DNA of 20,880 nt from a virus: the IMG/VR virus record IMGVR_UViG_3300031216_000082, positions 1-20,880 of that record. One strand, written 5' to 3'. Under the pieces are notes generated by a model. The model was not told the origin of the DNA. It did not search any database and saw only the letters and a program-made list of their open reading frames with translations. The position numbers and the translations under genes are program-made. Below, one piece after another: positions 3,049 to 17,367 of the stretch (the stretch's first letter is position 1; every line of letters begins with the position of its first letter).

Positions 3049-3052
3049 AGGC

Positions 3053-3289: not shown

Positions 3290-3298
3290 CCAGCACAC

Positions 3299-5090: not shown

Positions 5091-5115
5091 CGTCAATCAA
5101 AACGATGTTGACCTT

Positions 5116-5144
5116 TTCAGTTTGTGTATCCATAAACTGAATAC
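5116..5144 (+). promoter_or_regulatory. Motif 1, copy B, overlapping an 8-bp inverted repeat
   Basis: The 19-bp motif at 5126-5144 (GTATCC-N7-GAATAC) ends on the base before the protease ATG. TTCAGTTT at 5116-5123 and AAACTGAA at 5134-5141 form a perfect inverted repeat that brackets GTATCC. A TTGACC (5108-5113) lies upstream with CATAAA 17 bp later, which could be a -35/-10 pair. The symmetry suggests operator-like binding or an RNA hairpin next to the start codon. Confidence 0.65.
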
Positions 5145-6182
5145 ATGGCAGAATCTTTTCAGTCGCAAGTAGTAGCATTTGACCAGTCACTCGGACTGGC
5201 ACTGCTTGACAACGCCATCGACCTTACAGCCGGAACCATCAAAGGCGTAAGCCTTGCGACCGCAGGCGTTGAGGCCATCGGCCACGGCGAGTATGACGAG
5301 ACCACGCAAGAGCTGATACGCGAGTTCTGGACAGACGCTACCACGCTTGAGACGATGCTTGTTGCCTGCCTTGCAATCGGACAGCCGCTCAAAGCCAAGC
5401 TTGAACACGGCACCGGACTCTCCGAAGTCGTTGGCACGTTCGACAATTTCCGTATCGATGGCGATCACCTCCGCGCAGACTTTACAGCGATTCCAACCTC
5501 AGCGGGCGTAGCGCATTTGTTTTCGCTAGCCGACCGCATCTCTAGGCAGTTCGGCGTATCCGTCACAGCACTACTGCAAAAAGTAAAACAGGGCGGGGTC
5601 GATCTAATGCGCTGCATGAAGATAGAGTCGGCGGACTTTGTGGACGCGCCCGCAATCAACGCGGGCTTATTTTCCGCTAAAACTAAATTTAGCAAACTCA
5701 CCAAAAACCAAACACAGATTATGACAGAAGAAGAAATCAACGCACTGATTGCCGAGGCATTAAAGCCCATGCAAGAGCAACTTACTACACTCGTGGAGGG
5801 TATGCCCGAAGAGCTATCAGCCGACGAACTCGAAGCTGAAGCGACCGCCGCTGCTGCACTTGAAGCTGAGGGTGAAGCAAGCAAAGCTGAAATGTCTGCG
5901 CTTAAAGCCAGCATGACAGCACTGGAGACTAAAAACTCCACGCTCGAAGCTAACCTTGCTACGGCAACCGCCGAATCGAAAAAGCTCGGCATCTCGTTCG
6001 GCGCATCCTTGCAAGTGCAGGAAGCACAGACCAAACAGACCGACTCGTTCTCCGCCGAAATGTCCAAAAAGACCGGCGAGGGCAAAGCTTACCACGTCGC
6101 GCTTATGGAGCTTACACGTGAAAATCCAAAACTCGTAAATGCAGAGGCCGCTCAGCGCGGAGTCTACGTTTCTCAACTCTAA
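5145..6182 (+). CDS. Prohead maturation protease fused to scaffold domain
   Basis: The 345-aa product has an N-terminal protease-like domain (about 1-180) and a C-terminal scaffold-like domain (about 193-345). It would guide capsid assembly and then degrade the scaffold and itself inside the prohead. The protease half carries an LEHG segment with His88, a GTFDNFRIDGDHLRADF segment, and FGVSV with Ser139. This His/Ser layout matches prohead proteases of the HK97/herpesvirus-type fold. The rest is acidic and helical, rich in Ala/Glu/Leu with coiled-coil character near 245-286, as expected for scaffold. The ATG directly abuts motif 1. An internal in-frame start is annotated separately. The exact peptidase family is uncertain because the linking sequence was not compared with databases. 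Confidence 0.82.
   Translation: MAESFQSQVVAFDQSLGLALLDNAIDLTAGTIKGVSLATAGVEAIGHGEYDETTQELIREFWTDATTLETMLVACLAIGQPLKAKLEHGTGLSEVVGTFDNFRIDGDHLRADFTAIPTSAGVAHLFSLADRISRQFGVSVTALLQKVKQGGVDLMRCMKIESADFVDAPAINAGLFSAKTKFSKLTKNQTQIMTEEEINALIAEALKPMQEQLTTLVEGMPEELSADELEAEATAAAALEAEGEASKAEMSALKASMTALETKNSTLEANLATATAESKKLGISFGASLQVQEAQTKQTDSFSAEMSKKTGEGKAYHVALMELTRENPKLVNAEAAQRGVYVSQL
5721..6182 (+). CDS. Putative nested scaffold protein from an internal start of the protease gene
   Basis: An in-frame ATG at codon 193 of the protease gene would yield a 153-aa protein (starts MTEEEINALIAEAL) consisting only of the helical, acidic scaffold domain. It is preceded by an A/C-rich stretch (CCAAAAACCAAACACAGATT) very like the leaders of genes at 232, 6203 and 11738. 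Lambda makes its scaffold Nu3 in the same nested way from the protease gene C. The stretch encodes a low-complexity interdomain linker (KLTKNQTQI), which fits a dual-purpose sequence. No expression data exist, so this is inference by analogy and leader resemblance. Confidence 0.55.
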   Translation: MTEEEINALIAEALKPMQEQLTTLVEGMPEELSADELEAEATAAAALEAEGEASKAEMSALKASMTALETKNSTLEANLATATAESKKLGISFGASLQVQEAQTKQTDSFSAEMSKKTGEGKAYHVALMELTRENPKLVNAEAAQRGVYVSQL

Positions 6183-6202
6183 TCCACAAACAGTAAAACA
6201 TT

Positions 6203-6589
6203 ATGGCAGGATCAACTACAGTTTTTAACGTCGCCGGGGTCGTAACAGGTCTAGCGGACGCAGACCTCGCGCAATTCATTCGCGTGAAAATCACAGCAAC
6301 CGGTTACGCAGTAGCCGCCAAAGCTGACCGTGCAGACGGCATCACTCAAGAGGCGATTGCATCTGGTGCTTACGGCTCCATCAAACTTCTTAGCGGGGCC
6401 GACGTGAACTTCGGCACCGCTTCGGGCGCAACCATCGCAGCAGGCGTTAAAGTCTACAGCACGTCTGCTGGCGAGCTTTCCTCGACTAAGGCAACCGGCT
6501 CTTTTGAAGAGGGCGTATCGATCACAGCCGCAGGCGCTGACGAAATCTTCGAGTGGCGCTACAAGCCTTCATCCGTTGCCGAGTCCTAA
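6203..6589 (+). CDS. Head decoration / capsid cement protein
   Basis: The 128-aa protein lies directly before the major capsid gene, the usual place for the decoration protein that binds the expanded shell and stabilises it. It is beta-rich, with many Ala, Gly, Thr and Val residues and an alternating hydrophobic pattern (FNVAGVVTG, FIRVKITATGYAVAA, GVKVYSTSAGEL). There is no signal peptide or membrane segment. Composition and length fit cement proteins of the gpD-like or DUF2190-like kinds, and I cannot separate these by eye. ATG 6203 follows an A/C-rich leader ending AAAACATT, shared with the 11738 gene, and no Shine-Dalgarno sequence. Confidence 0.72.
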   Translation: MAGSTTVFNVAGVVTGLADADLAQFIRVKITATGYAVAAKADRADGITQEAIASGAYGSIKLLSGADVNFGTASGATIAAGVKVYSTSAGELSSTKATGSFEEGVSITAAGADEIFEWRYKPSSVAES

Positions 6590-6596
6590 GCTCTGC

Positions 6597-6615
6597 GTAT
6601 CCAATAACCAACTAC
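6597..6615 (+). promoter_or_regulatory. Motif 1, copy C (GTATCC-N7-AACTAC)
   Basis: The left half, spacing and the fixed C are kept; the right half is AACTAC as in copy E. The site lies 10 bases before the major capsid ATG and eight bases after the decoration gene stop, so the most strongly needed gene of the module has its own copy. Confidence 0.68.
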
Positions 6616-6625
6616 ATTTAATATT

Positions 6626-7582
6626 ATGTCAGTCTCACAAGCATCAATCTCACAAGCCTTGACGTCCTACGTTCTACAAGGTCTCGCAAAACGAACCGAC
6701 TTTGTCGGCCTCGAAGTTGCTCCCGAACACGGGCAAGATAAACTCGACGGCGAGTATCCAGTCGTTGCACTCGCAAACGGCGAAATGCTTCGCAACAACA
6801 CCGCACCGCGAGCACCGGGTGCCCTGTTTAAGCGGATCGAAGCAAAGATCGGACTTGAGACAACTAAGCTGTCTGGCGACGGTTTGGAAATCCCAATCCC
6901 TATCGAAGTCGCTCGCAACTCGGACATCCCAATCATCGGGGTGTACGCCGAGGAAGCCATGCTCAACAGCATGCGCTTGCACGAGACCCGCGTAGCCGCA
7001 ATCTCTCAAGGAACCGGCTTTGACACGGTAGCCTCTACCGCTGCCTACACTACTGCGAACATCGCGACGAGTGATCTGGCTATGGACATCCAACTCGGCA
7101 TTGACCGCGTGCGTGACCGTGGCGAGTATCCTGACACGATTGTCATCCCGCAAGCCGTTTGGACGCGTCAGCGCTTCTCGACTAAGCTCGCCGCGTTCAT
7201 CGTTGGCGCAAATGGTGCAGGCGCAATGGTCACAGTCTCAAATCTGCAAAAGGCATTTGCCGATGAAGGCATCAAGCGCGTCTTGATTGGCCGCTCGCAG
7301 ATCAACACTGCCGCAAAGGGCAAGGTGGACATCGGTCAGATTTGGGCAAACACTCACATCTGGATCGGCGCAGGCCGCGACGCCGACACCAATGCACCTG
7401 GCGACTCGATGCGCACCGCGATCAAGACCTTCTTCTGGCGTGAGATCTTTAACGCGCCGTTCTTCGTTGAGCAGTATTTCGAGAAGAAGATCGAAAGCGA
7501 CATCATCCGCGCTTGGGGCTACACCAACGAGAAGCTAGTCAACGCCCGCGCTGGCACCCGCATCACCACGCAATACTCATAA
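6626..7582 (+). CDS. Major capsid protein (HK97 fold)
   Basis: The 318-aa protein is the shell subunit. It follows protease/scaffold and decoration genes and is followed by a strong terminator, the classic position. The pattern is that of lambda/Mu-like capsid proteins. It has an N-terminal helix then 'DFVGLEVAPEHGQ', a long middle domain with 'PDTIVIPQAVWTRQRF' and 'GQIWANTHIWIGAG', and a C-terminal 'TFFWREIFNAPFFVEQYF' strand before 'DIIRAWGYTNEKLVN'. No protease-removed N-terminal delta domain is obvious, consistent with a separate scaffold. The start follows AATATT, with no Shine-Dalgarno sequence. The fold is inferred, but the identity is strongly supported by context. Confidence 0.9.
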   Translation: MSVSQASISQALTSYVLQGLAKRTDFVGLEVAPEHGQDKLDGEYPVVALANGEMLRNNTAPRAPGALFKRIEAKIGLETTKLSGDGLEIPIPIEVARNSDIPIIGVYAEEAMLNSMRLHETRVAAISQGTGFDTVASTAAYTTANIATSDLAMDIQLGIDRVRDRGEYPDTIVIPQAVWTRQRFSTKLAAFIVGANGAGAMVTVSNLQKAFADEGIKRVLIGRSQINTAAKGKVDIGQIWANTHIWIGAGRDADTNAPGDSMRTAIKTFFWREIFNAPFFVEQYFEKKIESDIIRAWGYTNEKLVNARAGTRITTQYS

Positions 7583-7610
7583 GTTTTCATTAGGGGTAAT
7601 GATATAGCGG

Positions 7611-7641
7611 AAGGGGCGTCTCGAAAGGGGCGCCCCTTTTT
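7611..7641 (+). terminator. Rho-independent terminator after the major capsid gene
   Basis: AAGGGGCG (7611-7618) pairs with CGCCCCTT (7631-7638), followed by further Ts to 7641. The inner GGGGCGCCCC (7627-7636) is self-complementary, so an alternative tight hairpin is possible. It would stop or attenuate readthrough from the head operon into the next cassette. Confidence 0.8.
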
Positions 7642-7653
7642 GTGTCTACAGGC

Positions 7654-7670
7654 CTTGACAACCTGCACAC
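7654..7670 (+). promoter_or_regulatory. Motif 2, copy 2
   Basis: The 17 bp are identical to copies at 2772 and 8209. It begins 12 bases after the capsid terminator T run, so it is well placed to start the cassette of small membrane proteins. A -10 at standard spacing is not evident (AATGTC), so the element may not act as a simple sigma-70 promoter. Confidence 0.55.
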
Positions 7671-7678
7671 GCGCAGCA

Positions 7679-7942
7679 ATGTCGAGCTGTAGCAATTCCG
7701 CTGCACACACCAGCACCGACGCAAGAGCAATCCGAGCCGCTATCATGCGTGCTCGCAGCTACCGAGGAACCATCCCGCCGACAACACCTAACCCGCACAG
7801 CCATGAATCCGATCATCACGATAATCGCCGCCAACATCGTCTCAATCATCTGCACCATCGGAGCCGTGACGCTCGCCCTAAACGGCATCGAAAGCTGGGT
7901 ATGGTTCCTGGCCGCGGCTGCGTGGTGCGCAACGCGGGTTGA
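7679..7942 (+). CDS. Possible small ORF at the head of cassette 2 (doubtful)
   Basis: An 87-aa frame starts at ATG 7679, eight bases after motif 2. The first 35 or so residues (with TDARAIRAAIMRARSYRG) look coding-like. From about 7803 it overlaps the better-supported membrane-protein ORF, and its translation there is His/Arg-rich, typical of an out-of-frame shadow. It could be a genuine overlapping gene, or the start of a gene truncated by insertion or frameshift. No function is recognised. It is kept because it fills the space between motif 2 and the next gene. Confidence 0.25.
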   Translation: MSSCSNSAAHTSTDARAIRAAIMRARSYRGTIPPTTPNPHSHESDHHDNRRQHRLNHLHHRSRDARPKRHRKLGMVPGRGCVVRNAG

Positions 7943-7988
7943 CTTCCGCCGATACCGAGAGGCCAAGCGCAACCGTCCTAACCTGTAA
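7803..7988 (+). CDS. Small membrane protein (61 aa)
   Basis: The ORF from ATG 7803 encodes 61 residues. A long hydrophobic segment (about residues 3-26, ITIIAANIVSIICTIGAVTL) is followed by a second at about 31-41 (WVWFLAAAAW) and a basic tail (DFRRYREAKRNRP). This predicts an inner-membrane protein with one or two helices and a cytoplasmic basic C-terminus. The frame is open upstream to GTG 7749, but the ATG immediately precedes the membrane helix. It overlaps the next small gene by one base (TAACG). In a phage cassette such proteins can be holins, superinfection-exclusion factors or other host modifiers; nothing here decides which. Confidence 0.6.
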   Translation: MNPIITIIAANIVSIICTIGAVTLALNGIESWVWFLAAAAWCATRVDFRRYREAKRNRPNL

Positions 7989-8131
7989 CGCCGACCTACC
8001 ACCTAATCTTACAGCTAGCGTTCTGCGGTTTCGGCCTAGTCGCCGCCTGCGTATTTTCCTACGGCTGTTTTCTGCTGGCGGAATCCATCGGCAGCATTTA
8101 CCGGATTGCTAAGGATCGATTTCGGCGATAA
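7988..8131 (+). CDS. Putative 47-aa membrane microprotein with a non-canonical ACG start
   Basis: This frame has no ATG, GTG or TTG start but looks coding. After the stop at 7979-7981 it is open to TAA 8129-8131 and encodes a clear transmembrane helix, FGLVAACVFSYGCFLLA, then a basic tail (IYRIAKDRFRR). The preceding gene ends at TAACG, where ACG (7988-7990) is in frame. Five other junctions in this window are TAATG (9372, 10034, 12744, 15815, 19065), and 20509 makes a sixth. A T-to-C change, or a true ACG start, would fit. The product with its tail mirrors the preceding 61-aa protein. It may be poorly expressed or a recently disabled gene. Confidence 0.45.
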   Translation, partial: TPTYHLILQLAFCGFGLVAACVFSYGCFLLAESIGSIYRIAKDRFRR

Positions 8132-8166
8132 CACCTAGCTAGTAAACTCGTTTCCCTAGCGACTCC

Positions 8167-8195
8167 ACAGCCCCGCAGCAATGCGGGGCTGTTTT
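8167..8195 (+). terminator. Rho-independent terminator closing cassette 2
   Basis: A perfect 10-bp stem, ACAGCCCCGC (8167-8176) with GCGGGGCTGT (8183-8192), has a six-base loop and a short T tail (8192-8195). It lies 36 bases after the membrane microprotein frame and 14 bases before motif 2 copy 3. Confidence 0.85.
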
Positions 8196-8208
8196 GTGCA
8201 CACAAACA

Positions 8209-8225
8209 CTTGACAACCTGCACAC
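8209..8225 (+). promoter_or_regulatory. Motif 2, copy 3, before the DNA ligase gene
   Basis: This third identical copy of the 17-bp motif lies between a terminator and the ligase ATG (8245). TATCTA (8235-8240) could serve as a -10 at 19-bp spacing from TTGACA. A terminator at 8967 closes the unit, so the ligase appears to be transcribed alone. Confidence 0.58.
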
Positions 8226-8244
8226 ACAACGCACTATCTACCCC

Positions 8245-8958
8245 ATGACACACGCCCCCCAACTCGCTACAGACTACTACGGCCAACCGATCAAAGGCTG
8301 GCTGCTTTCCGAAAAGCTGGACGGCATCTACGCAGATTGGACAGGATCAGAGCTTCGCACGAAGACAGGCAAGCTCATCCTATGCCCTACGAGCATCACA
8401 GACAGCCTTCCAGCGTTTCCCTTAGCGGGCGAGCTATGGGCGGGGCGCGGAGGGTTTCAGCGCGTTCTATCCGCCCTCAAATCTGGCATCTCTGGCGACT
8501 GGGCAAGTATTGAGTTTGTGGCATTTGACGCGCCCGGCTCACTTGCCCGCGCATCAACTCGGATGGAGATAACACAAAGCATCCCTAGCGTTAAAGCGGT
8601 ATCCCAAACCGTAATTACCGACAAGCGCCACATGAAGCGCCTAGTCAAAGAGATACTAGCCACCGGCGGAGAGGGCGCAATCCTGCGCAATCCAGCATCA
8701 CTATACACCGCTGGCAGGTCTGACGACTACGCCAAGGTCAAGCCCGTGCTATGCGACGAGGCGACCTATACGGGCAAGACAGTGACCACAGCGACGGGAA
8801 AAACTTCATTAATCTGCGAGTATCAAGGTGAGACCTTTAAACTCCACACCAACACGCCAGCAACTAAAGGCCAGCTAGTCACGTTTGAATATTACGGACT
8901 GACAGACAGTGGCAAACCTCGGCACGCTCAGTTTATTGCAATCAGAGACTACGAGTAA
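8245..8958 (+). CDS. Minimal ATP-dependent DNA ligase
   Basis: The 237-aa enzyme would seal nicks through a lysyl-AMP intermediate. All core nucleotidyltransferase motifs are seen: motif I EKLDG with adenylated Lys24, motif III GELWAGRGGF near 62-71, IIIa FVAFDAP near 91-97, IV GEGAILRNP near 142-150, and V YAKVKP at 162-167. A short OB-fold follows from about 170 (LICEYQGETFKLHT, LVTFEYYGLTDSGKPR). There is no DNA-binding N-domain and no signal peptide, unlike many periplasmic LigE proteins, so it is a stripped-down cytoplasmic type. I chose ATG 8245; the frame extends upstream into the motif 2 region. The gene stands alone between two terminators inside the structural region, far from any replication gene. 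Confidence 0.9.
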   Translation: MTHAPQLATDYYGQPIKGWLLSEKLDGIYADWTGSELRTKTGKLILCPTSITDSLPAFPLAGELWAGRGGFQRVLSALKSGISGDWASIEFVAFDAPGSLARASTRMEITQSIPSVKAVSQTVITDKRHMKRLVKEILATGGEGAILRNPASLYTAGRSDDYAKVKPVLCDEATYTGKTVTTATGKTSLICEYQGETFKLHTNTPATKGQLVTFEYYGLTDSGKPRHAQFIAIRDYE

Positions 8959-8966
8959 AATCTAGC

Positions 8967-9001
8967 GCCTCACAGCCCCGAGTAAACTGCGAGGCTTTTT
9001 T
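8967..9001 (+). terminator. Rho-independent terminator closing the ligase cassette
   Basis: GCCTCACAG (8967-8975) pairs with CTGCGAGGC (8987-8995) with one A-C mismatch. The loop is 11 bases, and six Ts follow to 9001. Structural genes resume 20 bases later at motif 1 copy D. Confidence 0.85.
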
Positions 9002-9021
9002 GCGCCTTGCCATTTACATCT

Positions 9022-9040
9022 GTATCCATTAACTGAATAC
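9022..9040 (+). promoter_or_regulatory. Motif 1, copy D (GTATCC-N7-GAATAC)
   Basis: This copy is nearly identical to copy B (ATTAACT versus ATAAACT in the spacer). It ends two bases before the ATG of the first head-tail joining gene and 20 bases after a terminator, so it marks the restart of the structural operon. Confidence 0.72.
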
Positions 9041-9042
9041 AA

Positions 9043-9372
9043 ATGAACGCACTAGACATCTTCATAGAGCGCGGTAATACGCAGTCTGCGCCCGTCATAG
9101 GCGAGACCTTTACGTGGGCATCAGCCGAATACGTTGGCACCGTCAGTGACCTCGTAAAGGATGAGTTCTTTGCTGACGACGGCATCGGATCAAAGCTCAA
9201 TGCAGAGCGGTTACTTGAATGCGCCGTGTCGGTATTTGGTGGCGGTGGGATGCCGCAGATCAAGGATACGATTACTTACCTTGCGGTCATCTACCAGATT
9301 ACGGAAATCGAGTCACAGGACACCACGAATATCGTGTGGAAGATCCGCGAAAAGATGGGGGTCGCTACATAA
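9043..9372 (+). CDS. Head-closure / head-tail joining protein (putative)
   Basis: The 109-aa product is beta-rich and begins with a helix (MNALDIFIERG). 'GETFTWASAEYVGTVSDL' and 'DTITYLAVIYQITEIE' follow, and the last segment (TNIVWKIREKMG) looks like a closing strand. This size, with a short beta-barrel-like pattern, fits head-completion proteins such as lambda FII or other stoppers that close the portal after packaging. It is the first structural gene after the capsid protein, where such genes normally sit. Its stop overlaps the next ATG (TAATG). The function is inferred mainly from gene order. Confidence 0.6.
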   Translation: MNALDIFIERGNTQSAPVIGETFTWASAEYVGTVSDLVKDEFFADDGIGSKLNAERLLECAVSVFGGGGMPQIKDTITYLAVIYQITEIESQDTTNIVWKIREKMGVAT

Positions 9373-10034
9373 TGGCAAAGCCAGTAAAAGATTTCTCGGT
9401 CGAGTTTGACCAAGTGCAGATAAACAAGCTCTTCAACGAGCTACTGCGCAACGTGAGCGCGGTCACGCTCAAAAACATCGTGCGCGGAGAAGCGGCAGCG
9501 GTGCTACTTAGCGCGGCGAAAAAGACTCGGATTGCTAGCAAGAAACTCATAATCAAAACCTCGGGAATGGAGAAGGCGGCAAGGGTTTACAAAAATCGCA
9601 ATCCTAGATGGATCACTAGATCTGCGGAGCTACTAGCAAAACGAAAAGCCCGGCTAGCCGAAAAACTGCGAAGGATCGGGAGTGCTCGTGACGCATGGCT
9701 GGCGATTATCCGCAAACTCAACCTCAAACCCGCGAACGCCAACCAGGCCAAAGGTCTAACGAAACTCATGGGCAAAAAACGCCCACTAGTAGACGGTAAA
9801 ATAATCTATCATAAAGAGACGGGTGGCCGTGAGATCGTTAGGGGCAAGGGTTCTTACGCGCTAGAGATCAAATACGGAAACCCTATTGGAAGATGGACAG
9901 GCGCAAGCCCTGCGCTAAAAAGCGCCGTCCTCGGCCGCAGGAAGTTCTTTCGCTCAAACCTCCGCGCAGGCGTGTTCAACTCTGCCAAGGAAACCGCCGC
10001 TAAGTATCCCGGCATCCAGATCAACAAACTGTAA
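9372..10034 (+). CDS. Tail-completion / minor tail protein (gpZ- or gp10-like, putative)
   Basis: The 220-aa protein starts at ATG 9372, which overlaps the previous stop as TAATG; the frame is open upstream, but that start fits the coupled pattern. The N-terminal helix carries FDQVQINKLFNELL. A very basic helical middle follows (about 55-135, many Arg/Lys), and the C-terminal part is mixed (GSYALEIKYGNP). Basic proteins of this size between the stopper and the tail terminator are usually the minor tail protein Z or HK97 gp10 group, which complete the upper end of the tail tube. The family is not proven by a motif I can name, so position carries most weight. Confidence 0.6.
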   Translation: MAKPVKDFSVEFDQVQINKLFNELLRNVSAVTLKNIVRGEAAAVLLSAAKKTRIASKKLIIKTSGMEKAARVYKNRNPRWITRSAELLAKRKARLAEKLRRIGSARDAWLAIIRKLNLKPANANQAKGLTKLMGKKRPLVDGKIIYHKETGGREIVRGKGSYALEIKYGNPIGRWTGASPALKSAVLGRRKFFRSNLRAGVFNSAKETAAKYPGIQINKL

Positions 10035-10564
10035 TGGCAAACGAAAACTCAGTCTACTCATACGAGACCAACTTCATCGCCGCGCTGGAAAGCATCCTAG
10101 ACGTTGCACTGACGCAGACCGTCGCGTTTGGCGACACTACGGCGCACCAGGCGCCGCGCATCGAGGTTGGCTTTACCTACGGCGGCGCAGGCATCATTGA
10201 CCGTGGGCGCACCGCCACAGGCGAGCAGTATCTACGCAAGCACAATGGCACGATCAACCTGACGGTATTCGGCACGGTCAAGTCCGATCACCTCGCGCTC
10301 GTTGGAAAGGTGCGCACGTTTATGGCGTGGAACGTCCCGACGCTGATTTCGCCCGCGCTGGCTTACTACCAAGTGCAGAGCCTGTTTGAGCAGGCGGGCA
10401 GCAACGAGGCAGGCGATGAGGAGGGCGACTTTGAGATCAGCTCGGAACTTAACTTTGACGTCGTGTTTTTTATTCCTACCGAGGCATTCGACGCATCAAA
10501 CATTATCAAATTCAGCCAAACAGCAATCTACTTTGGCACCGATCAACTATTTTACGGAGACTAA
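10034..10564 (+). CDS. Tail terminator protein (gpU-like, putative)
   Basis: The 176-aa protein begins at a TAATG junction with the preceding gene. An N-terminal helix (NFIAALESILDVAL) leads into alternating beta strands (RIEVGFTYGG, GTINLTVFGTVKSD), a second helix and strands ending 'LNFDVVFFIPTEAFD'. This alpha-beta layout with about 170 residues resembles lambda gpU-like terminators, which cap the tail tube when tape-measure length is reached and bind the head. The gene sits third in the joining cluster, as expected. It ends just before the beta-helix gene, with a six-base gap. Assignment is from order and pattern. Confidence 0.6.
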   Translation: MANENSVYSYETNFIAALESILDVALTQTVAFGDTTAHQAPRIEVGFTYGGAGIIDRGRTATGEQYLRKHNGTINLTVFGTVKSDHLALVGKVRTFMAWNVPTLISPALAYYQVQSLFEQAGSNEAGDEEGDFEISSELNFDVVFFIPTEAFDASNIIKFSQTAIYFGTDQLFYGD

Positions 10565-10569
10565 ATATC

Positions 10570-11655
10570 ATGAGCAACAACAACCTAGAAAACGGCAACA
10601 GCAACGAAATCGACGCAACGCGCCGCGCAAGCATCCGCGCCACGATGGAAGTTTACAGCCAAGACGAAACGGACGCTCGGCCTACGCTTATCGGCAACAC
10701 GATATTCGTCGCCAAGACTGGCACCGACACCCGCACCGGACTCGACGACCACGACATCCGTAAGCCGTTTCTGACAGTCAACGCAGCGCAGGCAGTGGCG
10801 GTGAGCGGCGACACGATCATGGTCTTTGCTGGCGACTACAGCGCAGAGACCGCGCTCGGCGGCGTGGATGGCGTTTATTATCAGGGGATTACCGGCGCGA
10901 CGTTGCCAGCGTTTAACGTAATGACTGGGATTACTATTTACGGCAGCGGATTGGCGCAGTCGCTTCTTTGCAATCATGCCAGCGCGGTCATGAATTTTGC
11001 GCGGATGGATGCGGTAACTTTTATTGAGTGCGGGGGCGGAGTGCAAACCGTTGGCAACGCTAGCACTATTATTTATTGCGATGGCGGCGTGCAGACCGCA
11101 GGCAACGCTGGCAATTATATTTATTGCGATGGCGGCGTGCAGACCGCTGGCAACGCTGGCACTTATATTTATTGCGGCGGCGGCGTGCAGACCGCTGGCA
11201 ACGCTGGCACTATTATTTATTGCGAAGACGGCGTGCAGACAATCACTCACGCAAACTTCACCTCAACCGACCGCCCCGTCAGACTATCAGGACCAGGCAG
11301 CCTCACCATAACAGGCCGCATCGAGTCCACCGAGTCAAACGGCGTGATCGTGGACATCGCCAACAGCTGGAGCGGCACACTTAATGCCGTAGACCTTGAC
11401 CTGACAGCCACCACCGTCGCCACCAACGGCGCAACCAAGGGCATCAACTACGGCAACAGCGTCACGGGCAATGTGCAGCTCAAGAACTGCACTATCATCA
11501 CGGCCAAGAACGGCAGCGGCACCGCCAAGAGCATCGACGCGCCCGCCGCGCAAGCCGTCTACGTTCAGGGCTCGCTCAACCAAACACACGCGGTTGATTC
11601 CGACATCACGCTGGCGGGCGGCGCTGCTATCACCAACACGTCATTCACCGTGTAA
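10570..11655 (+). CDS. Beta-helix protein with tandem 16-residue repeats
   Basis: A 361-aa protein of right-handed beta-helix type. After a short N-tail, residues about 45-85 (FVAKTGTDTRTG, then DIRKPFLTVNAAQA, GDTIMVFAGDYS) match the opening of pectate-lyase-like phage and surface proteins. About residues 154-217 are four copies of a 16-residue unit, CDGGVQTAGNAGTYIY, plus a partial fifth, which would add regular helix turns with stacked Cys and Asn columns. Threonine-, serine- and asparagine-rich coils follow. Such proteins usually bind glycans or act as tailspikes or head/tail decorations. It lies between the tail terminator and the next small gene, where a major tail protein would be expected, and lacks any tail-tube pattern I recognise. 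Confidence 0.7.
   Translation: MSNNNLENGNSNEIDATRRASIRATMEVYSQDETDARPTLIGNTIFVAKTGTDTRTGLDDHDIRKPFLTVNAAQAVAVSGDTIMVFAGDYSAETALGGVDGVYYQGITGATLPAFNVMTGITIYGSGLAQSLLCNHASAVMNFARMDAVTFIECGGGVQTVGNASTIIYCDGGVQTAGNAGNYIYCDGGVQTAGNAGTYIYCGGGVQTAGNAGTIIYCEDGVQTITHANFTSTDRPVRLSGPGSLTITGRIESTESNGVIVDIANSWSGTLNAVDLDLTATTVATNGATKGINYGNSVTGNVQLKNCTIITAKNGSGTAKSIDAPAAQAVYVQGSLNQTHAVDSDITLAGGAAITNTSFTV
11029..11240 (+). repeat. 48-bp tandem repeat (about 4.4 copies) inside the beta-helix gene
   Basis: Copies start at 11029, 11077, 11125 and 11173, with a partial fifth from 11221. Copies 2-4 differ at only a few bases; copy 1 and the fifth are more diverged, so the centre looks like the newest expansion. 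Each copy is 16 codons, so gain or loss changes length without a frameshift. The repeat also keeps other frames open, producing false ORFs. Confidence 0.95.
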
Positions 11656-11693
11656 ACTTTAGTCATTGCGATTTGCTCAAAACTTTGCAATGT

Positions 11694-11712
11694 GTATCCA
11701 GGATCCAACTAC
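11694..11712 (+). promoter_or_regulatory. Motif 1, copy E (GTATCC-N7-AACTAC)
   Basis: The left half, spacing and fixed C are kept; the right half is the same as copy C. It is farther from its start codon (25 bases) than the other intergenic copies. Just upstream, CATTGC (11664-11669) and GCAATG (11687-11692) form an inverted repeat without a T run. The 82-bp gap between the beta-helix gene and the next gene holds nothing else. Confidence 0.65.
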
Positions 11713-11737
11713 AACACAACCAAACCACTAAAACATT

Positions 11738-12112
11738 ATGACAACAGAATACGAAGACGGCGCACAATTACTTGACGCATTCGAGGCTCCAATCGCTACG
11801 CAAGATTACATTTTTAACGATTGGAGCGTGACCCCCGCGACACTCATGGCGGAGCGCAACGACGAAAAAGGCCGTCTTGCCGCAAAGCGCAACCTCGACG
11901 ATCCCGGTCGTGATACTGCAACAGCAACGATTCAGATTTCAGTTTCGGCGATGAATCAGAAACTGACTCACGAAACGTTCATCTGCCCTGCCGGTGCGCA
12001 CTACGACGGCAACGCTACAACTTACGTTATCGAATCTGAAACTGCACCAGTGACAGTCAACGAGTCCCGCATTCGCACGATCACCTGCCGTAGAATCCTC
12101 ACCCAGCCTTAA
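11738..12112 (+). CDS. Small tail protein, possible tail-tube subunit
   Basis: The 124-aa protein has beta-strand patterns throughout (TATIQISVSAMNQKLT, TTYVIESETAPVTVN, RIRTITCRRIL) and no signal or membrane segment. It has its own motif 1 copy and an A/C-rich leader ending AAAACATT, as in the decoration gene, which suggests a product needed in quantity. A major tail protein is expected somewhere between the terminator and chaperone genes. This is the only remaining beta-rich candidate there, though it is short for the family. That role is a position-based guess. Two bases separate its stop from the next GTG. Confidence 0.5.
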   Translation: MTTEYEDGAQLLDAFEAPIATQDYIFNDWSVTPATLMAERNDEKGRLAAKRNLDDPGRDTATATIQISVSAMNQKLTHETFICPAGAHYDGNATTYVIESETAPVTVNESRIRTITCRRILTQP

Positions 12113-12114
12113 CC

Positions 12115-12744
12115 GTGCGCAACGTCAAGGCCAGCATCCCAGGATGGCTTGACGCGATCCAACATGAGGCCGAGTGTCACGAGTCGGCAATCGCACACCC
12201 TCACGATGGAGTCTGCGGCGTGCCTATTCGTCACCTCAGCTTGATTGACCTCGCTCGGATGCGCGAGCCGTCGATTGATAACTGCTTTTTTAACGGCAAT
12301 TATCCCAGCGAATTTGAGTTCATGGCGCTGCCTCAGCTACAGGCTCACGCCGTGGACTTTCTCGTTTATCAACACGTCAAGAGCACGACTAACTCATTCG
12401 TCAACACGTGCCGCCGCTACAGATACCGCCGCCTAGACATGGCGACCGTATACGCCGATATTACGCAGCTCCTGACATCTACCTACCTTGACGCGCTCGG
12501 AGCCTCTGACGAGTCGCACGGGCGCACGGCAATAAGCTTCTGGGCGGGATCAGTGGACTACGTTGACCTGATCGCGACGGAATACGGATGGACGGACACG
12601 CACATCGAAAACATGCCGTATCGCAAGCTGATTCAATGCGTGCGCAAAATCCTAAAGCGGCGCGACCCGAAACAGATTATCAGCTCGTCGGCTGATCGCG
12701 TTGTATCGCGGTGGCAGGAGCATAAAGCAAAGGAGCGTAACTAA
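12115..12744 (+). CDS. Possible tail assembly chaperone, helical protein before the tape measure
   Basis: The 209-aa product begins at GTG 12115, three bases after the previous stop codon; no better start precedes it. It is mostly helical. It contains His and Cys residues near the N-terminus (IQHEAECHESAIAHPHDGVC), aromatic-rich helices in the middle (ATVYADITQLLTSTYLDAL) and a basic C-terminus (RVVSRWQEHKAKERN). Position directly before the tape measure is that of tail assembly chaperones (lambda gpG/GT), which coat the tape measure during tail growth. No slippery-sequence frameshift to a second frame is seen, so the usual two-protein chaperone system is not evident. Its stop overlaps the tape-measure ATG. 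Confidence 0.45.
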   Translation: MRNVKASIPGWLDAIQHEAECHESAIAHPHDGVCGVPIRHLSLIDLARMREPSIDNCFFNGNYPSEFEFMALPQLQAHAVDFLVYQHVKSTTNSFVNTCRRYRYRRLDMATVYADITQLLTSTYLDALGASDESHGRTAISFWAGSVDYVDLIATEYGWTDTHIENMPYRKLIQCVRKILKRRDPKQIISSSADRVVSRWQEHKAKERN

Positions 12745-14531
12745 TGGCATTTTCACTCAAGGCAATTTTAGGGCTGGAAACTTCGCAGTTTGAGCGCGGC
12801 ATCGGTAAAGCCAAAAGCGGCATCAAGGGCATGGCTAGTGAAGGCATCAAGAATATTGCCCGACTAGGCGCGGCATTTGTTGGAATTGGCCTTGTAAAAA
12901 ACATTTTAAGCTTAGGTTTGGCGGCGACTGAAACAGCCGACAAGTTCAATGCCGTGTTTGGGCCAGCGGCCGGAGCAATGAATAAAAGGATTGAGGAACT
13001 ACAAGAAACAATTCCCGCTTCAGTCAAAGAGCTACAAGATGCCCTTGCCGTATTCGGTCAAATGGCTAGCTCTTTCGGGCTTAATTCAGCCGCCGCTCAA
13101 GATTTTTCAGTCAACATGGTTAAAATAGCAGGCGATTTAGCCAGCTTTAACGACATGAAACCCGAAGAGGTTTTTATAAAGCTCCGATCAGCAATTACTG
13201 GAGAATTTGAGCCATTAAAGCAGATGGGCATAATGATCGATGCAGCTAAAATGAAGACTGAGGCGTTTAATCTTGGCATATCAGACGGTGTTACCGCCCT
13301 TAGTTCATCTCAAAAAGCCATCGCAATACAGTCGCTAATTGTTCAACAAATGGGTGCTGCATCGGGAAACGCGGCAATTACCGCCAATAGTGCAGCAAAT
13401 CAATTTAAGTTTCTTCAACGGAACATGAAAGACTTGGCTGCGGAAATTGGAACAGAAGCATTACCGGCCGTCGAATCAATGATAAGGGGTATTGGTTTTT
13501 TACTTAGTAAGACCAAAGAGTTTACGGATTTTGCAGGCACAAAAGTAGGGGAAATGATTTACGGGCCATCTGCTGAAACTTTAGCAAAACAAGAAAAGTT
13601 TAACCAGCTAAAGGCTGCTCAGTTGCAAGCGTTGCGCGAACTTACAGCGGAGAATGAGCTTTATAAACAGGGAACTTTTGAAGGTACGCTCTGGACTAAG
13701 GGACTCAGTGAGAAACTAGATGAAAATAAAGCTAAAATAAAAGCTCGCACTGCTGCTATATTAAAAGGACTAAGCGAAGAAGCCGAAAAAACCGAATCTG
13801 TCAAAGATGGCATAGTAAAAGGCGACGACGAAATAAACGAAGGTAAGGATGAAATAAGCGAATCTCAAAAGAAAATCAATGAAGCAAATGATGCTTTATT
13901 AAAAAGCATAAATGATCAAATTGAAGCTCAAGGGGAGTTTGCTAAACAACAAGAAATTATTGCAGAAGCCGCTAAATCAGCAGCAGAGGAAAAAGCAGAA
14001 AGAGAAGCTCTCCAAGCTAAGCTCATGTCAATGAAACTGGCCGCCCTCAAAGCTGAAACTAGGGGAGAAGACCAGCTTGCAAAAGCGATGAATAACCGCA
14101 TAAAACTAGCGGAGCGCATACTCAAAATAATGAAGGAAACTGGCGCGACCCAGCGCGAAGCGACCATCATAGCCAACAAGCAGGTCAAGGCTGAGTTGGC
14201 GGGGGACAGCGGATCAACTGGCGGCACCGCAAGCGGATCAACGGGCGGGTCAACCGGCAAAGACCGCGTTGGCGGCGTGCAGGGCAACTTCGGCGGCTAT
14301 GGCTCCCGCTTTGGGCCTAAGCAGACAATGGACGAGCGCGAACGTGCAGCCGGTCTCAACCTCGCCGGCAACGACACTTTAAGCGGGCGCAGAGGCCCCG
14401 AAAGCCTCGGAATGGCTGGATCAAAGGCTAAGAGCGAGTTTGGGGAAGCATTGACTCCGACGAATAAGGAGCTGAGTAAAATGAATCGCTCGCTGAAAAC
14501 AATCGAAACCGAACTGACCAATGGCAACTGA
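12744..14531 (+). CDS. Tape measure protein
   Basis: A 595-aa, strongly helical protein that sets tail length and is ejected with the DNA. The start is TAATG-coupled and has a good AAGGAG site eight bases upstream, rare in this window. N-terminal residues carry the typical opening (GLETSQFERGIGKAKSGIKG), then a hydrophobic segment at about 38-58 (LGAAFVGIGLVKNILSLGLAA) and FNAVFGPAAGA. Ala/Gly-rich membrane-prone helices and long Glu/Lys coiled coils follow (about 270-460). A Gly/Ser/Thr linker (about 490-530) precedes the C-terminus. At about 0.15 nm per residue the tail would be roughly 90 nm. DNA at about 12860-14060 is clearly more AT-rich than its neighbours. Confidence 0.9.
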   Translation: MAFSLKAILGLETSQFERGIGKAKSGIKGMASEGIKNIARLGAAFVGIGLVKNILSLGLAATETADKFNAVFGPAAGAMNKRIEELQETIPASVKELQDALAVFGQMASSFGLNSAAAQDFSVNMVKIAGDLASFNDMKPEEVFIKLRSAITGEFEPLKQMGIMIDAAKMKTEAFNLGISDGVTALSSSQKAIAIQSLIVQQMGAASGNAAITANSAANQFKFLQRNMKDLAAEIGTEALPAVESMIRGIGFLLSKTKEFTDFAGTKVGEMIYGPSAETLAKQEKFNQLKAAQLQALRELTAENELYKQGTFEGTLWTKGLSEKLDENKAKIKARTAAILKGLSEEAEKTESVKDGIVKGDDEINEGKDEISESQKKINEANDALLKSINDQIEAQGEFAKQQEIIAEAAKSAAEEKAEREALQAKLMSMKLAALKAETRGEDQLAKAMNNRIKLAERILKIMKETGATQREATIIANKQVKAELAGDSGSTGGTASGSTGGSTGKDRVGGVQGNFGGYGSRFGPKQTMDERERAAGLNLAGNDTLSGRRGPESLGMAGSKAKSEFGEALTPTNKELSKMNRSLKTIETELTNGN

Positions 14532-15243
14532 ATATTTAGACGGCACCGCCTTCACTACTGCCCGCCAACACGGCGACTTAATCCTCGATCGCCCATTGAC
14601 TGACGTGGGCGACGCGACAGCTCTGGTTATCTACCGCACGATGCGGATTCTAAGCGCCGACTACGCTCCCGTTAGCAGGGGCACAGCGTTAGCGGGATTT
14701 ACTGGATCTCGACTCATTCGCGAAACGCAACCCGAAGAAATCAGCACGGGAGTGTGGGAATTTAAGCAAATCTATGCAACAAAGCCAGCGAACCGATCAG
14801 ACGTGTTTTCAGGCTCGATCAGCTTTCCATTTCCATCAACTCAAGGCGTATATTACACGCCTCCTGCGACTGCTGAGTCTGCTGATGAAAGTGATGATAA
14901 CCTGTGGGAATATCGCGAAGAAAAAACGGCTGTCACGAATCCCGGCGTTTTGTATATTGATTACGTTTACTTCCTCGAAGCTTCACCTCCGACAATAGCC
15001 ACAGTGTTTAAGTCATCAGAGCCCGGATTCGTTTCTAATGGCGGCGCGGGCACATTAACGAATGCAAAAGCCTTAAACGGGGATGTATTCACTGGAACAT
15101 ATTCAGTCAGTGCCACCACGCCATCCGCTACAGCTTACGCAACATCAATAACGGATGGCGATCTGTTAAATGTTGACGTGCGGATTAGCAGATACATGGG
15201 CGACATTTTCGTCATGGAAACCCACAAGACAGCCGCAAAATGA
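14521..15243 (+). CDS. Tail protein of unknown type, first gene after the tape measure
   Basis: A 240-aa protein whose start lies within the last codons of the tape measure, so it is translationally coupled. The sequence is beta-rich: TALVIYRTMRILSADYAP, GVWEFKQIYATKP and VDVRISRYMGDIFVMET, with Ser/Thr-rich loops between. No motif of the distal-tail, hub or gpM/L/K families is visible. By position it may be a distal tail-like or tail-tip base protein. It is coupled downstream by ATGA to the 191-aa gene. Function is unassigned beyond a structural tail role. Confidence 0.6.
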   Translation: MATEYLDGTAFTTARQHGDLILDRPLTDVGDATALVIYRTMRILSADYAPVSRGTALAGFTGSRLIRETQPEEISTGVWEFKQIYATKPANRSDVFSGSISFPFPSTQGVYYTPPATAESADESDDNLWEYREEKTAVTNPGVLYIDYVYFLEASPPTIATVFKSSEPGFVSNGGAGTLTNAKALNGDVFTGTYSVSATTPSATAYATSITDGDLLNVDVRISRYMGDIFVMETHKTAAK

Positions 15244-15815
15244 AAATAAAACCCGAAGAAGTTAAAGGCTGGGGCACCTTTCGGCGTGTATTGAAAAAGC
15301 TGATACACTCCGCCAACCGCACCGAAAACATTTCGATTAGCCGAAATAGTTTCACCGACGGCGTGACCTATTCAGGCGATTCGATCATACTTAATATTTC
15401 AAAATCGAAACCAAGTCTCGGCGGCGTCAGCTCTGGAAATTTAGGCATTCACGCCTTTCAGTTAGTTGAAGAGGATATTACTACGCTTTGCGTTCGACAA
15501 GGAACCGTTGGCACTATCATTCCGACTATTACAGGAGGCAGCGAACTTGAACCCGATTACACCGAAAACGTGTTATCACTACCGGGCACAGGAACCCGAG
15601 AATACTGGCTCAAGATTACAATAGACTCAAGTGGCTATATTACAGCCGTCACCATCGAGGATGGTGAGCCAGGTAACGTCAGCGCAACTCAAGCTGAAAT
15701 CCTACTTGGAAGCGTTGAGACCGATAGTGGCGATATAGTCGTGTTTAACTCAAACCTTAGCGGCTCACAGGCACTAGCCTCTTGTGGCGCAAATCACTTT
15801 TTTGGATTCGTCTAA
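15240..15815 (+). CDS. Beta-rich tail-tip protein, unknown function
   Basis: The 191-aa protein is coupled to both neighbours (ATGA before, TAATG after). After a basic N-terminus (GWGTFRRVLKKLIHSANRT) it is almost entirely beta-prone: NISISRNSFTDGVTY, DSIILNISKS, ITTLCVRQGTVGTIIP, EYWLKITIDSSGYITAVTIE and GDIVVFNSN. The rest is Ser/Gly-rich turns and an aromatic end (NHFFGFV). The pattern suggests a beta-sandwich or trimeric fibre part. No catalytic motif is seen. It is grouped with the tail tip only by location and coupling. Confidence 0.55.
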   Translation: MKIKPEEVKGWGTFRRVLKKLIHSANRTENISISRNSFTDGVTYSGDSIILNISKSKPSLGGVSSGNLGIHAFQLVEEDITTLCVRQGTVGTIIPTITGGSELEPDYTENVLSLPGTGTREYWLKITIDSSGYITAVTIEDGEPGNVSATQAEILLGSVETDSGDIVVFNSNLSGSQALASCGANHFFGFV

Positions 15816-17068
15816 TGGGAAACCCGTTCAACATAGGGCCGTTTAATTGTTGCTCCTGTCCTGAGCCTCCAGACTTCGATGCCGAGGTGGACGATCCGAT
15901 GGCTAAGTATATCAATATGTGCGGTTGCCCGACTGTCGCGATATTCTGCGTGAGCGAGGAAAAGATCGCTACGCTCTGCGGCAAAATGGAATTTCAAGAC
16001 CTCACCGCCGATCCCCCCGTATTGCGGTCTTCACCGCCCGCAGTGTATAAGTCAAAGGAAGTTGAGACTGTCACCGTCACACCCTCTGTCACCACAAGTT
16101 TCCCGCAGCGCTGCTGGCAAACAGGGATCACTGGTGACTCAGATGTTACTACAATAGATTATACGGCCACGGCAGTTACGACAAGCCGGCACTTTACTGA
16201 AAAGACAGTAACAAGTCTATCCACCGAAGTGTGGGATACGGAAACATGCTCAAGCTCTACCTCAAACGATCCTGTTTCCATTGTAGGAGGTGTAGGCAGC
16301 ACGTCTGGCGAGCTTGATTGCTCTAGCTATAATGGCAACAACCCCCCCGGTTGCGGCCCAATAGATCCACCCCTCACAACACGGGGTGCTGTAATACCCG
16401 CTGTTGTGCCAGATGATCCGTCCGACTTGGTTGGAAACGCATTAAAAATAAACGTATCTCATACATTTGTTAATAGTGGTAGAGCCGCAGGCACCTATGA
16501 ATACACATCATCTCGGCAGGACACAGAAACTTTCGATGGGCTTGAGTTAGTGGATTCGGATTGCGGAATTGATTCTAGATCAACTTTAGATATACCTGGG
16601 TATGCTGCTAGATACTCCACTACCACAACAACAACTACATTATCGTTGCCAGACTCCGAGGAAGAAGCATTAGCCCGCGCTACGGCCAAAGCAGGTTCAG
16701 ATTGTTCCTCTATCGACGAGCTCCGCACCGACTCCTACGACATAACCCAGCGCACCGCCACTTACACGGCTACAGCTAGCAACCTCGTGATCGGCGTGCC
16801 CTACAAGGGCTGCGTGCGCCTTCGTCGCCGCAAAGCCTACAGCGGCACCACCCCCCTCGACCCCGAGACGGAAGTCACCGAAGTTATCGCATGGGAAGAT
16901 GTTGAGCCCGACACCATTGCACCTTTTACGCCAACAGAAACAAGCGAGGAAGTCGCGACCGATGAAGCCCTGCCCACCGCCAAGGGCTATGAATACCAAG
17001 CAGTCAGCGCCCACGTCTGGCCAGTCTCCGCAGGTTGCGATTGCCCTACATCTTACGTAACCCCATGA
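15815..17068 (+). CDS. Large cysteine-rich tail-tip or fibre protein
   Basis: A 417-aa protein starting at ATG 15815 in a TAATG junction. The N-terminus has a dense cysteine set (NCCSCPEPPDF, then NMCGCPTVAIFCV and ATLCGK) and the C-terminus ends with SAGCDCPTSYVTP; single cysteines occur between. The middle is Thr/Ser-rich and beta-prone, with a run of seven Thr (YSTTTTTTTLSL) and repeated TxTxT stretches, suggesting an extended or fibrous fold. Cysteine pairs such as CxC may bind metal or an iron-sulfur group, as known for some tail tips, but no specific family is recognised. Base composition is more AT-rich in the middle than at the ends. Confidence 0.6.
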   Translation: MGNPFNIGPFNCCSCPEPPDFDAEVDDPMAKYINMCGCPTVAIFCVSEEKIATLCGKMEFQDLTADPPVLRSSPPAVYKSKEVETVTVTPSVTTSFPQRCWQTGITGDSDVTTIDYTATAVTTSRHFTEKTVTSLSTEVWDTETCSSSTSNDPVSIVGGVGSTSGELDCSSYNGNNPPGCGPIDPPLTTRGAVIPAVVPDDPSDLVGNALKINVSHTFVNSGRAAGTYEYTSSRQDTETFDGLELVDSDCGIDSRSTLDIPGYAARYSTTTTTTTLSLPDSEEEALARATAKAGSDCSSIDELRTDSYDITQRTATYTATASNLVIGVPYKGCVRLRRRKAYSGTTPLDPETEVTEVIAWEDVEPDTIAPFTPTETSEEVATDEALPTAKGYEYQAVSAHVWPVSAGCDCPTSYVTP

Positions 17069-17292
17069 TTACTCGAAACCATAAACCGACACCGCTCGTG
17101 CTGACCGAGGCACAGAAGGCCAGCTTGCAAAAGCCACAGTCGCGACCCAAGCACCACGGCTTAGGCGACCTCGTTGAAAAGCTCGCGAAGCCCATCGCCA
17201 AGGTGATCGACCGCGTGGCAGGCACAAACATTCAAGGATGTGGCGGGTGTCAGAAGCGCAAGGAATGGCTAAATGATAATTTCCCGAAGTAA
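17065..17292 (+). CDS. Small protein with a GCGGC motif, unknown function
   Basis: The 75-aa product starts at ATG 17065, which overlaps the previous stop (ATGA); an in-frame upstream start at 17035 would overlap more. It has a basic, Pro/Lys/His-rich N-terminal half, an amphipathic helix (GDLVEKLAKPIAKVIDRVAG) and a compact cysteine motif, GCGGCQKRKEWLN, near the C-terminus. Small proteins with this kind of CGGC-KR-LN ending recur in phage tail regions, but I know no proven function. A metal-binding or redox role would be a guess. The gap after it (75 bases) carries motif 1 copy F. Confidence 0.65.
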   Translation: MITRNHKPTPLVLTEAQKASLQKPQSRPKHHGLGDLVEKLAKPIAKVIDRVAGTNIQGCGGCQKRKEWLNDNFPK

Positions 17293-17342
17293 CCGCAAAA
17301 TTGACCCATCCCAGCCCGCTTCCAGTCGGCACTTGCCAAAAC

Positions 17343-17361
17343 GTATCCAATAACCTAATAC
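17343..17361 (+). promoter_or_regulatory. Motif 1, copy F (GTATCC-N7-TAATAC)
   Basis: This copy ends six bases before the ATG at 17368. Here the right half, TAATAC, lies 17 bp after TTGCCA (17333-17338), so it could act as the -10 of a sigma-70-like promoter. The other copies do not keep that distance, so the arrangement may be fortuitous. Confidence 0.7.
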
Positions 17362-17367
17362 ACTACC

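What the first reader, a model, noticed from the sequence alone, without database searches (positions are those of the whole stretch)
10570..11655. Beta-helix protein with recent 48-bp repeat expansion in the tail-tube position
Four near-identical 16-residue units with stacked Cys/Asn/Tyr columns sit between tail terminator and tail genes. The central units are almost identical at DNA level, showing recent duplication, and unit-number change would alter the length of the solenoid without frameshift. The location suggests a decoration or glycan-binding appendage, or a cargo gene, inside the tail operon.
Basis: partly seen in the sequence, partly recalled or inferred. Interest (0 to 1): 0.52.

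Follow-up and report, generated by a model that had tools for sequence, protein, structure and literature searches.

The report
Phage adhesin with hypervariable solenoid repeats
A virus of bacteria carries a coiled, repeat-built protein that is probably used to stick to a surface; the outward-facing residues of each coil and the number of coils differ between relatives, while the frame of the coil stays the same.

Summary
The repeat is real. Gene 10570-11655 (361 aa) holds five 48-bp/16-aa units (4.7 copies by TRF).

Comparison changes the picture. Relatives occur on 14 other IMG/VR records and carry 2, 4, 5, 7, 8 or 9 units. In 45 units, scaffold columns (I3, C5, G8, A15) hardly change. Columns 2, 4, 6 and 7, mostly the strand positions alternating with I3 and C5, are hypervariable: within arrays pN/pS is about 2.8 there and 0.43 elsewhere. 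Columns chosen on one subfamily held in the other.

One relative matches the window over 13,600 ungapped bases with 114 mismatches; 113 lie in 10875-11517, inside this gene. Another contig is identical for 10,305 bases and ends at 10874, the last base before that tract.

In seven related records the domain is the C-terminal part of a longer protein; the two N-termini tested match tail fibre gp22 of Verrucomicrobia phage P8625. In the window it is free-standing; in a T4-like phage it sits in the head operon.

Best reading: a modular virion adhesin whose exposed face is diversified by unit duplication, tract exchange and selection. No reverse transcriptase was found. Binding and virion location are inferred.

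The parts
10570..11655 (+). CDS of the 361-aa beta-helix adhesin (the finding)
   Evidence: relatives
10570..10689 (+). N-terminal ~40 residues, predicted mostly helical at low pLDDT, replaced by other N-termini in other lineages; putative anchor (inferred)
10690..11016 (+). N-terminal turns of the helix; the stretch up to about residue 100 (SGDTIxVFAGDYSAE) is conserved across lineages
   Evidence: phmmer residues 46-91 to xylosidase 3vst E=0.0032
11017..11256 (+). Five tandem 48-bp units (16 aa each; T-columns at 11017, 11065, 11113, 11161, 11209); hypervariable codons are columns 2, 4, 6, 7 of each unit
11257..11655 (+). C-terminal beta-helix domain, conserved
10875..11517 (.). Tract holding 113 of 114 mismatches between window 609-14208 and L011; L018 (identical from 570) ends at 10874
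10034..10564 (+). Upstream neighbour, 176 aa, gp15-like position (P8625 gp15 is 167 aa); identity as tail terminator not shown
11738..12112 (+). Downstream neighbour, 124 aa, gp16-like position (P8625 gp16 is 124 aa)
12744..14531 (+). Tape-measure gene (49% over 77 aa to P8625 gp19; 44% over 243 aa to L013 TMP); its centre is the second block replaced between window and L012

Best explanation
The gene encodes a virion-borne adhesin: a parallel beta-helix in which every 16-residue turn has a fixed scaffold (I, C, G, T/A/G/N turn) and a set of outward residues (columns 2, 4, 6, 7) that form a continuous ligand-binding strip. The strip is lengthened or shortened by duplication or loss of 48-bp units, its residues change under diversifying selection, and whole stretches are exchanged by homologous recombination with co-circulating phages. 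The module rides on different N-termini: a P8625-gp22-type tail fibre in most relatives, a short N-terminus in the window. Shown: repeat anatomy, predicted fold, hypervariable columns, unit-number differences, tract replacement, fibre linkage in relatives. Inferred: outward orientation from strand alternation, presence in the virion, receptor or glycan binding, recombination as the means of exchange.
For: Fold: array pLDDT block means 76-93 (residues 121-250) in the 8-unit model; VIA-align Z up to 18.1 (264 residues, 3.5 A) for the window model, against AlgE4 and, at 16.6-17.0, tailspikes, and up to 16.9 for the second model, top row a phage tailspike depolymerase. Variable columns: in 8 arrays, 45 units, within-array pN 0.54/pS 0.19 at columns 2, 4, 6, 7 against 0.14/0.32 elsewhere; columns picked on 6 arrays of subfamily I held in 2 arrays of subfamily II (0.55/0.17 against 0.13/0.30); 41 distinct 4-residue sets in 45 units. 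Localised exchange: 113 of 114 mismatches in 643 of 13,600 bp; 42 of the 78 differing codons of the gene are synonymous, as expected of imported tracts; L013 against L014, 38 of 41 mismatches over 11,480 bp lie at 8985-9536 in the fibre gene. Fibre link: L013 and L036 N-termini are 45% and 49% identical over 248 and 279 aa to P8625 gp22, annotated tail fiber.
Against: In the window the gene is detached from a fibre shaft and lies upstream of the tape measure; in the T4-like contigs L019/L022 it lies between head protease and major head protein genes, which fits a head or neck decoration as well as a fibre. No Pfam, PHROGs or NCBIfam family names it. Foldseek gave no significant PDB match (best E 0.31 and 0.33), and the VIA chains were preselected by Foldseek. 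Mean pLDDT is only 60 and 67. Two of three close pairs (L013/L014 and L081/L036) keep identical arrays. Bbp36, a phage protein with a variable repeat array, is reported as non-essential and unrelated to tropism (PMC2884959 passages).
Confidence: 0.6

Rival explanations
1. Capsid or neck decoration (Hoc-like in role): the solenoid is displayed on head or neck and binds glycans or particles in the water rather than the infection receptor.
For: In the window it is an extra gene between head-tail and tail genes; in L019/L022 it lies between genes for head maturation protease (phrog_207, E=1.2e-46) and major head protein (phrog_138, E=2.7e-82); both have short N-termini.
Against: In seven records the same domain is joined to a longer N-terminal part, gp22-like in the two tested and downstream of the tape measure in L013; L093 starts with a fibre-like N-terminus (motif recognised from memory).
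Confidence: 0.2
2. Selfish or tolerated repeat array, as Bordetella phage Bbp36 VR2: repeats expand and contract by slippage and the protein is dispensable.
For: Tandem 48-bp units, near-identical neighbours; VR2 arrays of about 14-21 24-bp copies in three Bordetella phages; Bbp36 reported non-essential.
Against: Slippage does not give pN above pS at four columns with purifying constraint at the others, in two subfamilies.
Confidence: 0.1
3. Polysaccharide-cleaving tailspike (depolymerase) with a right-handed beta-helix.
For: Best structural alignments include tailspikes and polysaccharide lyases or epimerases; a SASA carbohydrate esterase gene follows the fibre gene in L013 (E=2.2e-12).
Against: The exposed strip is hypervariable, unlike a conserved catalytic groove; no enzyme family hit. 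A catalytic site in the conserved end domains was not examined.
Confidence: 0.06
4. Diversity-generating retroelement target: the array is mutagenised by a reverse transcriptase from a template repeat.
For: Hypervariable codons confined to defined columns; localised change in otherwise identical genomes.
Against: No RVT_1 in 15 of 15 records searched (G000-G014), one of them 33.85 kb; in the 14 records no second copy apart from split hits to one array; differences include many synonymous scaffold codons. All records may be fragments.
Confidence: 0.02
5. Assembly artefact or chimera.
For: Several contigs end inside the gene (L005, L008, L017, L019, L022, L093), as repeats can cause.
Against: Same arrays recovered identically from different samples three times; open frame in all; mismatches extend outside the repeats into unique flanks (10875-11016 and 11251-11517).
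Confidence: 0.02

Closest known systems
Phage tailspikes and other right-handed parallel beta-helices (HK620, P22, CBA120 TSP3, APK16 gp47)
   Same: Parallel beta-helix, phage origin, role in binding surface glycans; VIA Z 16.6-17.0 for HK620 and CBA120 TSP3, 16.9 for APK16
   Different: Those have irregular, longer turns (recalled); here a short exact 16-residue unit is repeated, varies in number and has hypervariable columns
Bordetella phage BPP-1/BMP-1/BIP-1 Bbp36 with VR2
   Same: Phage protein with an in-frame tandem array differing in number and in two positions per unit between near-identical phages; array matches the L004 array weakly (tblastn E 0.002-0.01)
   Different: 8-aa units with three spacer types (YR, ES, NY), DUF7666 N-domain, among regulatory and replication genes; no such domain here
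Verrucomicrobia phage P8625 gp22 (tail fiber protein)
   Same: N-terminal 248-279 aa homologous to the N-termini that carry the solenoid in L013 and L036; same place after the tape measure
   Different: C-terminal half carries other repeats (SHAEG type; YadA_head E=0.016, below cut-off); window protein itself shares no such N-terminus
DGR-diversified phage receptor-binding proteins (Mtd of BPP-1; recalled)
   Same: Localised hypervariation of a binding surface
   Different: No reverse transcriptase or template found; repeat solenoid, not C-type lectin fold
Lamprey VLR / leucine-rich repeats (recalled)
   Same: Works alike: fixed scaffold, variable exposed strand residues, variable unit number
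   Different: Unrelated sequence and fold; no somatic assembly

Membership tests
Parallel beta-helix (phage tailspike-like) proteins | Parallel beta-helix fold | tested here: met
   AlphaFold2 array pLDDT up to 93; VIA Z 18.1, 264 aligned, 3.5 A. Prediction only; Foldseek E not significant
Parallel beta-helix (phage tailspike-like) proteins | Membership in a named tailspike/lyase sequence family | tested here: inconclusive
   No Pfam/PHROGs/NCBIfam hit; only an N-cap match to xylosidase 3vst, E 0.003/0.0008
P8625 gp22-type tail fibres | Homologous N-terminal domain, after the tape measure | tested here: not met
   Met for L013 and L036, not for the window protein (no significant match)
Bbp36 family | DUF7666 domain plus 8-aa GTATAGxx units | tested here: not met
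   Bbp36 has DUF7666 E=1.7e-10; window protein does not and its unit is 16 aa
DGR target protein | Reverse transcriptase and template repeat nearby | tested here: inconclusive
   RVT_1 absent in 15 of 15 records, but records may be fragments
Virion adhesin (functional class) | Present in virion and binds a host or environmental ligand | not testable with these tools
   -
Beta-helical ice-binding proteins | Regular conserved outward Thr/Asn ranks on a flat face | tested here: inconclusive
   Marinomonas antifreeze protein 3p4g is among the structural matches (Z 13.6) and one sample is from Ace Lake; T1, T11 and N14 are mostly conserved, but whether they face outward was not determined, and the strand face next to I3 and C5 is hypervariable

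The most novel reading that the evidence does not exclude
A phage counterpart of repeat-based variable receptors: each 16-residue turn contributes an independently varying set of about four exposed residues, turns are added, lost and shuffled, and whole tracts are swapped between nearly identical phages, giving an open-ended repertoire without a retroelement. The module is mobile between unrelated phages (P8625-like and T4-like) and between fibre, tail and head operons. A targeted mutator acting on the exposed codons is not excluded, since neighbouring units can differ by two-base codon changes while their scaffold DNA is identical.
Probability: 0.35. Interest if true: 0.82.

Novelty: new variant of a known kind. 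Interest (0 to 1): 0.62.

Why it matters
If the reading is right, phages have a way of varying their binding surface that needs no retroelement: a fixed repeat scaffold with variable exposed residues, diversified by recombination and selection. It would make testable, in cultivable relatives such as phages of Puniceicoccales, how turn number and exposed residues relate to what a phage sticks to. The regular unit is also a natural model for studying repeat-based binding proteins.

Tried and rejected
Ice-binding by an Antarctic-lake phage: considered because of the 3p4g match and the Ace Lake provenance of sample 3300023227; put low because the strand face next to I3 and C5 is the variable one. 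Third bases T or G only in column 4 of subfamily I suggested targeted mutagenesis; subfamily II uses other third bases, so I take it as local codon usage. RecT as a phage-borne recombination engine: PF03837 absent in 15 of 15 records, although P8625 has an annotated RecT. Genome contigs gave no relative, plasmids none, named phages only short N-terminal matches in cyanophages and the weak Bbp36 match among the rows listed. Most of the 23 stretches and the 49 are chance matches of the pattern: the checks left only the records listed in the report as carrying arrays. Long flanking direct repeats like those of L019/L022 were not found around the window gene. No paper describing this array was seen in the searches (open-licence PMC only; listings and abstract starts read; passages read only of PMC2884959 and PMC9716671). 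Liu et al. 2002/2004 on Bordetella phages were not read, only as cited in PMC2884959.

Full report
WHAT IS THERE. The gene is the ORF 10570-11655 on the + strand, 361 aa. TRF finds one strong tandem array, 11017-11240, period 48, 4.7 copies. Read by codons it is five units of 16 residues (consensus T-x-I-x-C-x-x-G-x-Q-T-A-G-N-A-G), the first and last diverged, the middle ones nearly identical; units 3 and 4 differ at three bases, all changing the residue. The window lies on a virus record of 20,880 bases; its terminase is of the GpA type (PF05876) and the first-ranked phage match is Verrucomicrobia phage P8625 at 25% identity.

FOLD. AlphaFold2 with 11 sequences gives mean pLDDT 60 for the window protein, block means 60-83 over the array (residues 151-230) and mostly 66-88 from there to residue 340; a second model, the eight-unit homologue L004 with 8 sequences, gives mean 67 and 76-93 over the array (residues 121-250). 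Foldseek finds no significant PDB match (best E 0.31 and 0.33), but the rows listed are largely parallel beta-helices by title, phage tailspikes and polysaccharide enzymes. VIA-align, which only re-aligns Foldseek's candidates, gives Z up to 18.1 over 264 residues (AlgE4) and 17.0 over 272 (HK620 tailspike) for the window model, and 16.9 over 305 for the second, top row a tailspike depolymerase. I take the fold as a parallel beta-helix, by prediction. The outward direction of columns 2, 4 and 6 is inferred from strand alternation with I3 and C5; coordinates were not inspected.

RELATIVES. Six scans of IMG/VR gave 14 records besides the window's own: L001, L002, L003, L004, L005, L006, L007, L008, L017, L019, L020 (same contig as L081), L022, L036, L093. 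Unit numbers: window 5; L001/L002/L003 5; L004/L005 8; L006 7; L007 4; L017 2; L036/L081 5; L022 9. L008 and L093 end before the array and L019 ends inside it. L019 and L022 come from one sample and overlap by 131 bp at 99%; that they are one phage is inferred. GTDB genome contigs gave none, plasmids none. One of the samples, 3300023227, is from Ace Lake, Antarctica (PMC9716671, passages).

VARIABLE FACE. I took 8 distinct arrays with 45 units; L002, L003, L005, L081 (duplicates) and L019 (a partial duplicate of L022) were left out, and the extra residue of the two 17-residue units was dropped. I3, G8 and A15 are invariant, C5 is C in 44 of 45; columns 4, 6, 2 have the highest entropy (3.3, 3.0, 2.6 bits), then 9 (2.0) and 7 (1.7). 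Within arrays pN/pS is 0.54/0.19 at columns 2, 4, 6, 7 and 0.14/0.32 at the other 12 (122 unit pairs). These columns were first seen in the same data, so I chose the four of highest pN on six arrays of subfamily I (they are 4, 6, 2, 7) and tested on two arrays of subfamily II: 0.55/0.17 against 0.13/0.30. Resampling arrays gives a ratio of 2.78 (2.17-3.42) against 0.43 (0.38-0.50). Not every single column fits: column 6 in subfamily I has pS 0.68 above pN 0.53, and columns 1, 9 and 16 also have pN above pS in subfamily I. Simple counts do not correct for saturation, shared ancestry of units or recombination. Same-residue scaffold codons differ in 23% of comparisons within arrays and 41% between, so units of one array are homogenised together.

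LOCALISED REPLACEMENT. Window 609-14208 and L011 align without gaps over 13,600 bases with 114 mismatches: 113 in 10875-11517, one at 11702, none elsewhere. L010 and L012 show the same 114 plus 11 at 12579-12801, beside a tape-measure gene that diverges over about 12.8-14.4 kb; after 14400 L012 shows 25 differences to 20672, most at 15045-15090 and 20086-20264. In the gene, 78 codons differ between window and L012, 42 synonymously and 36 not (1+6+24+11 and 0+7+22+7 by segment); this looks like imported sequence rather than point mutation of exposed codons alone. L018 is identical for 10,305 bases and its contig ends at 10874, one base before the tract, as would happen if two alleles coexist in that sample; this is an inference from an assembly end. 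L013 and L014 differ at 41 sites over 11,480 bases, 38 of them at 8985-9536 in the fibre gene, before an identical eight-unit array. L081 and L036 differ at 57 sites spread over 2.1 kb with none in the array. So array replacement is seen in one of three close pairs, and replacement within the same gene in two.

WHERE THE DOMAIN SITS. L004, L006, L007, L017, L036, L081 and (cut at its start) L005 carry it at the C-terminal end of a longer protein. L013 is syntenic with P8625 from gp13 to gp20 (27-64% identity) and its 647-aa protein matches gp22, annotated tail fiber, by 45% over 248 aa; L036 by 49% over 279. In P8625 itself the C-terminal half bears other repeats (weak YadA_head match, E 0.016). 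In the window and L001-L003 the domain has a 40-residue N-terminus and lies between a 176-aa and a 124-aa gene; P8625 has gp15 (167 aa) and gp16 (124 aa) adjacent there. The window's 176- and 124-aa proteins show no sequence match to these, so that correspondence rests on order and size. The window has no recognisable gp22 among the proteins compared. In L019/L022 the gene lies between a head maturation protease and a major head protein gene (T4 type by recognition), and a 252-bp copy of the protease's 3' end lies downstream of it at 98.8% identity, suggesting recent insertion.

MECHANISM AND RIVALS. I think it most likely (0.6) that this is a virion adhesin with a variable solenoid face. That it is in the virion and binds something is inferred from the fibre link and from the selection pattern. 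A head or neck decoration is the main rival (0.2). The Bbp36-type dispensable repeat (0.1) is the nearest precedent: TRF finds 13.8, 19.9 and 20.8 copies of a 24-bp unit in three Bordetella phages, and PMC2884959 (passages) reports the gene as non-essential and the variation as not reflecting tropism. A DGR is unlikely: no RVT_1 in 15 of 15 records, but these may be fragments. RecT was likewise absent in 15 of 15, so the recombination machinery is unknown.

NOVELTY. Beta-helix phage adhesins, variable repeat arrays and fibre exchange are each known. The combination, a short exact beta-helix unit with a few hypervariable columns, varying unit number, exchange between otherwise nearly identical phages and residence in unrelated phages, was not met in the searches listed under Tried and rejected. 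I rate it a new variant of a known kind.

Noticed in passing
window 8242-8955: A gene with ATP-dependent DNA ligase domains (PF14743 E=1.2e-7; PF01068 E=4.8e-5, below its cut-off) sits among head-tail structural genes; the 65-bp sequence before it (window 8130-8194) matches L013 1536-1600, directly before a gp13-like gene, so the ligase looks inserted.
   Followed up: partly
window ~12800-14400: The centre of the tape-measure gene is replaced between window and L010/L012 but not L011; it is the other large block that differs between these nearly identical phages.
   Followed up: partly
L022 984-1235 and L019 9545-9795: A 252-bp copy (98.8%) of the 3' end of a head protease gene follows the solenoid gene, with its frame broken; direct repeats flank the insertion.
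   Followed up: partly
window 17337-17373: A 26-37 bp sequence before the 138-aa gene is also found just after the solenoid-bearing gene in L013, L014, L015, L016, L036, L081; function unknown.
   Followed up: no
L083 (P8625) 15594-17498: gp22 carries repeated SHAEG-type units resembling YadA head repeats (E=0.016): the same N-terminus bears a different repeat.
   Followed up: no
L013 10638-12380: A SASA carbohydrate esterase domain (E=2.2e-12) in the gene after the fibre gene.
   Followed up: no
window 17788-19065: Laminin-G-like protein (PF02210 E=1.2e-4) matching P8625 gp24 (33% over 108 aa), possibly another distal tail protein.
   Followed up: no
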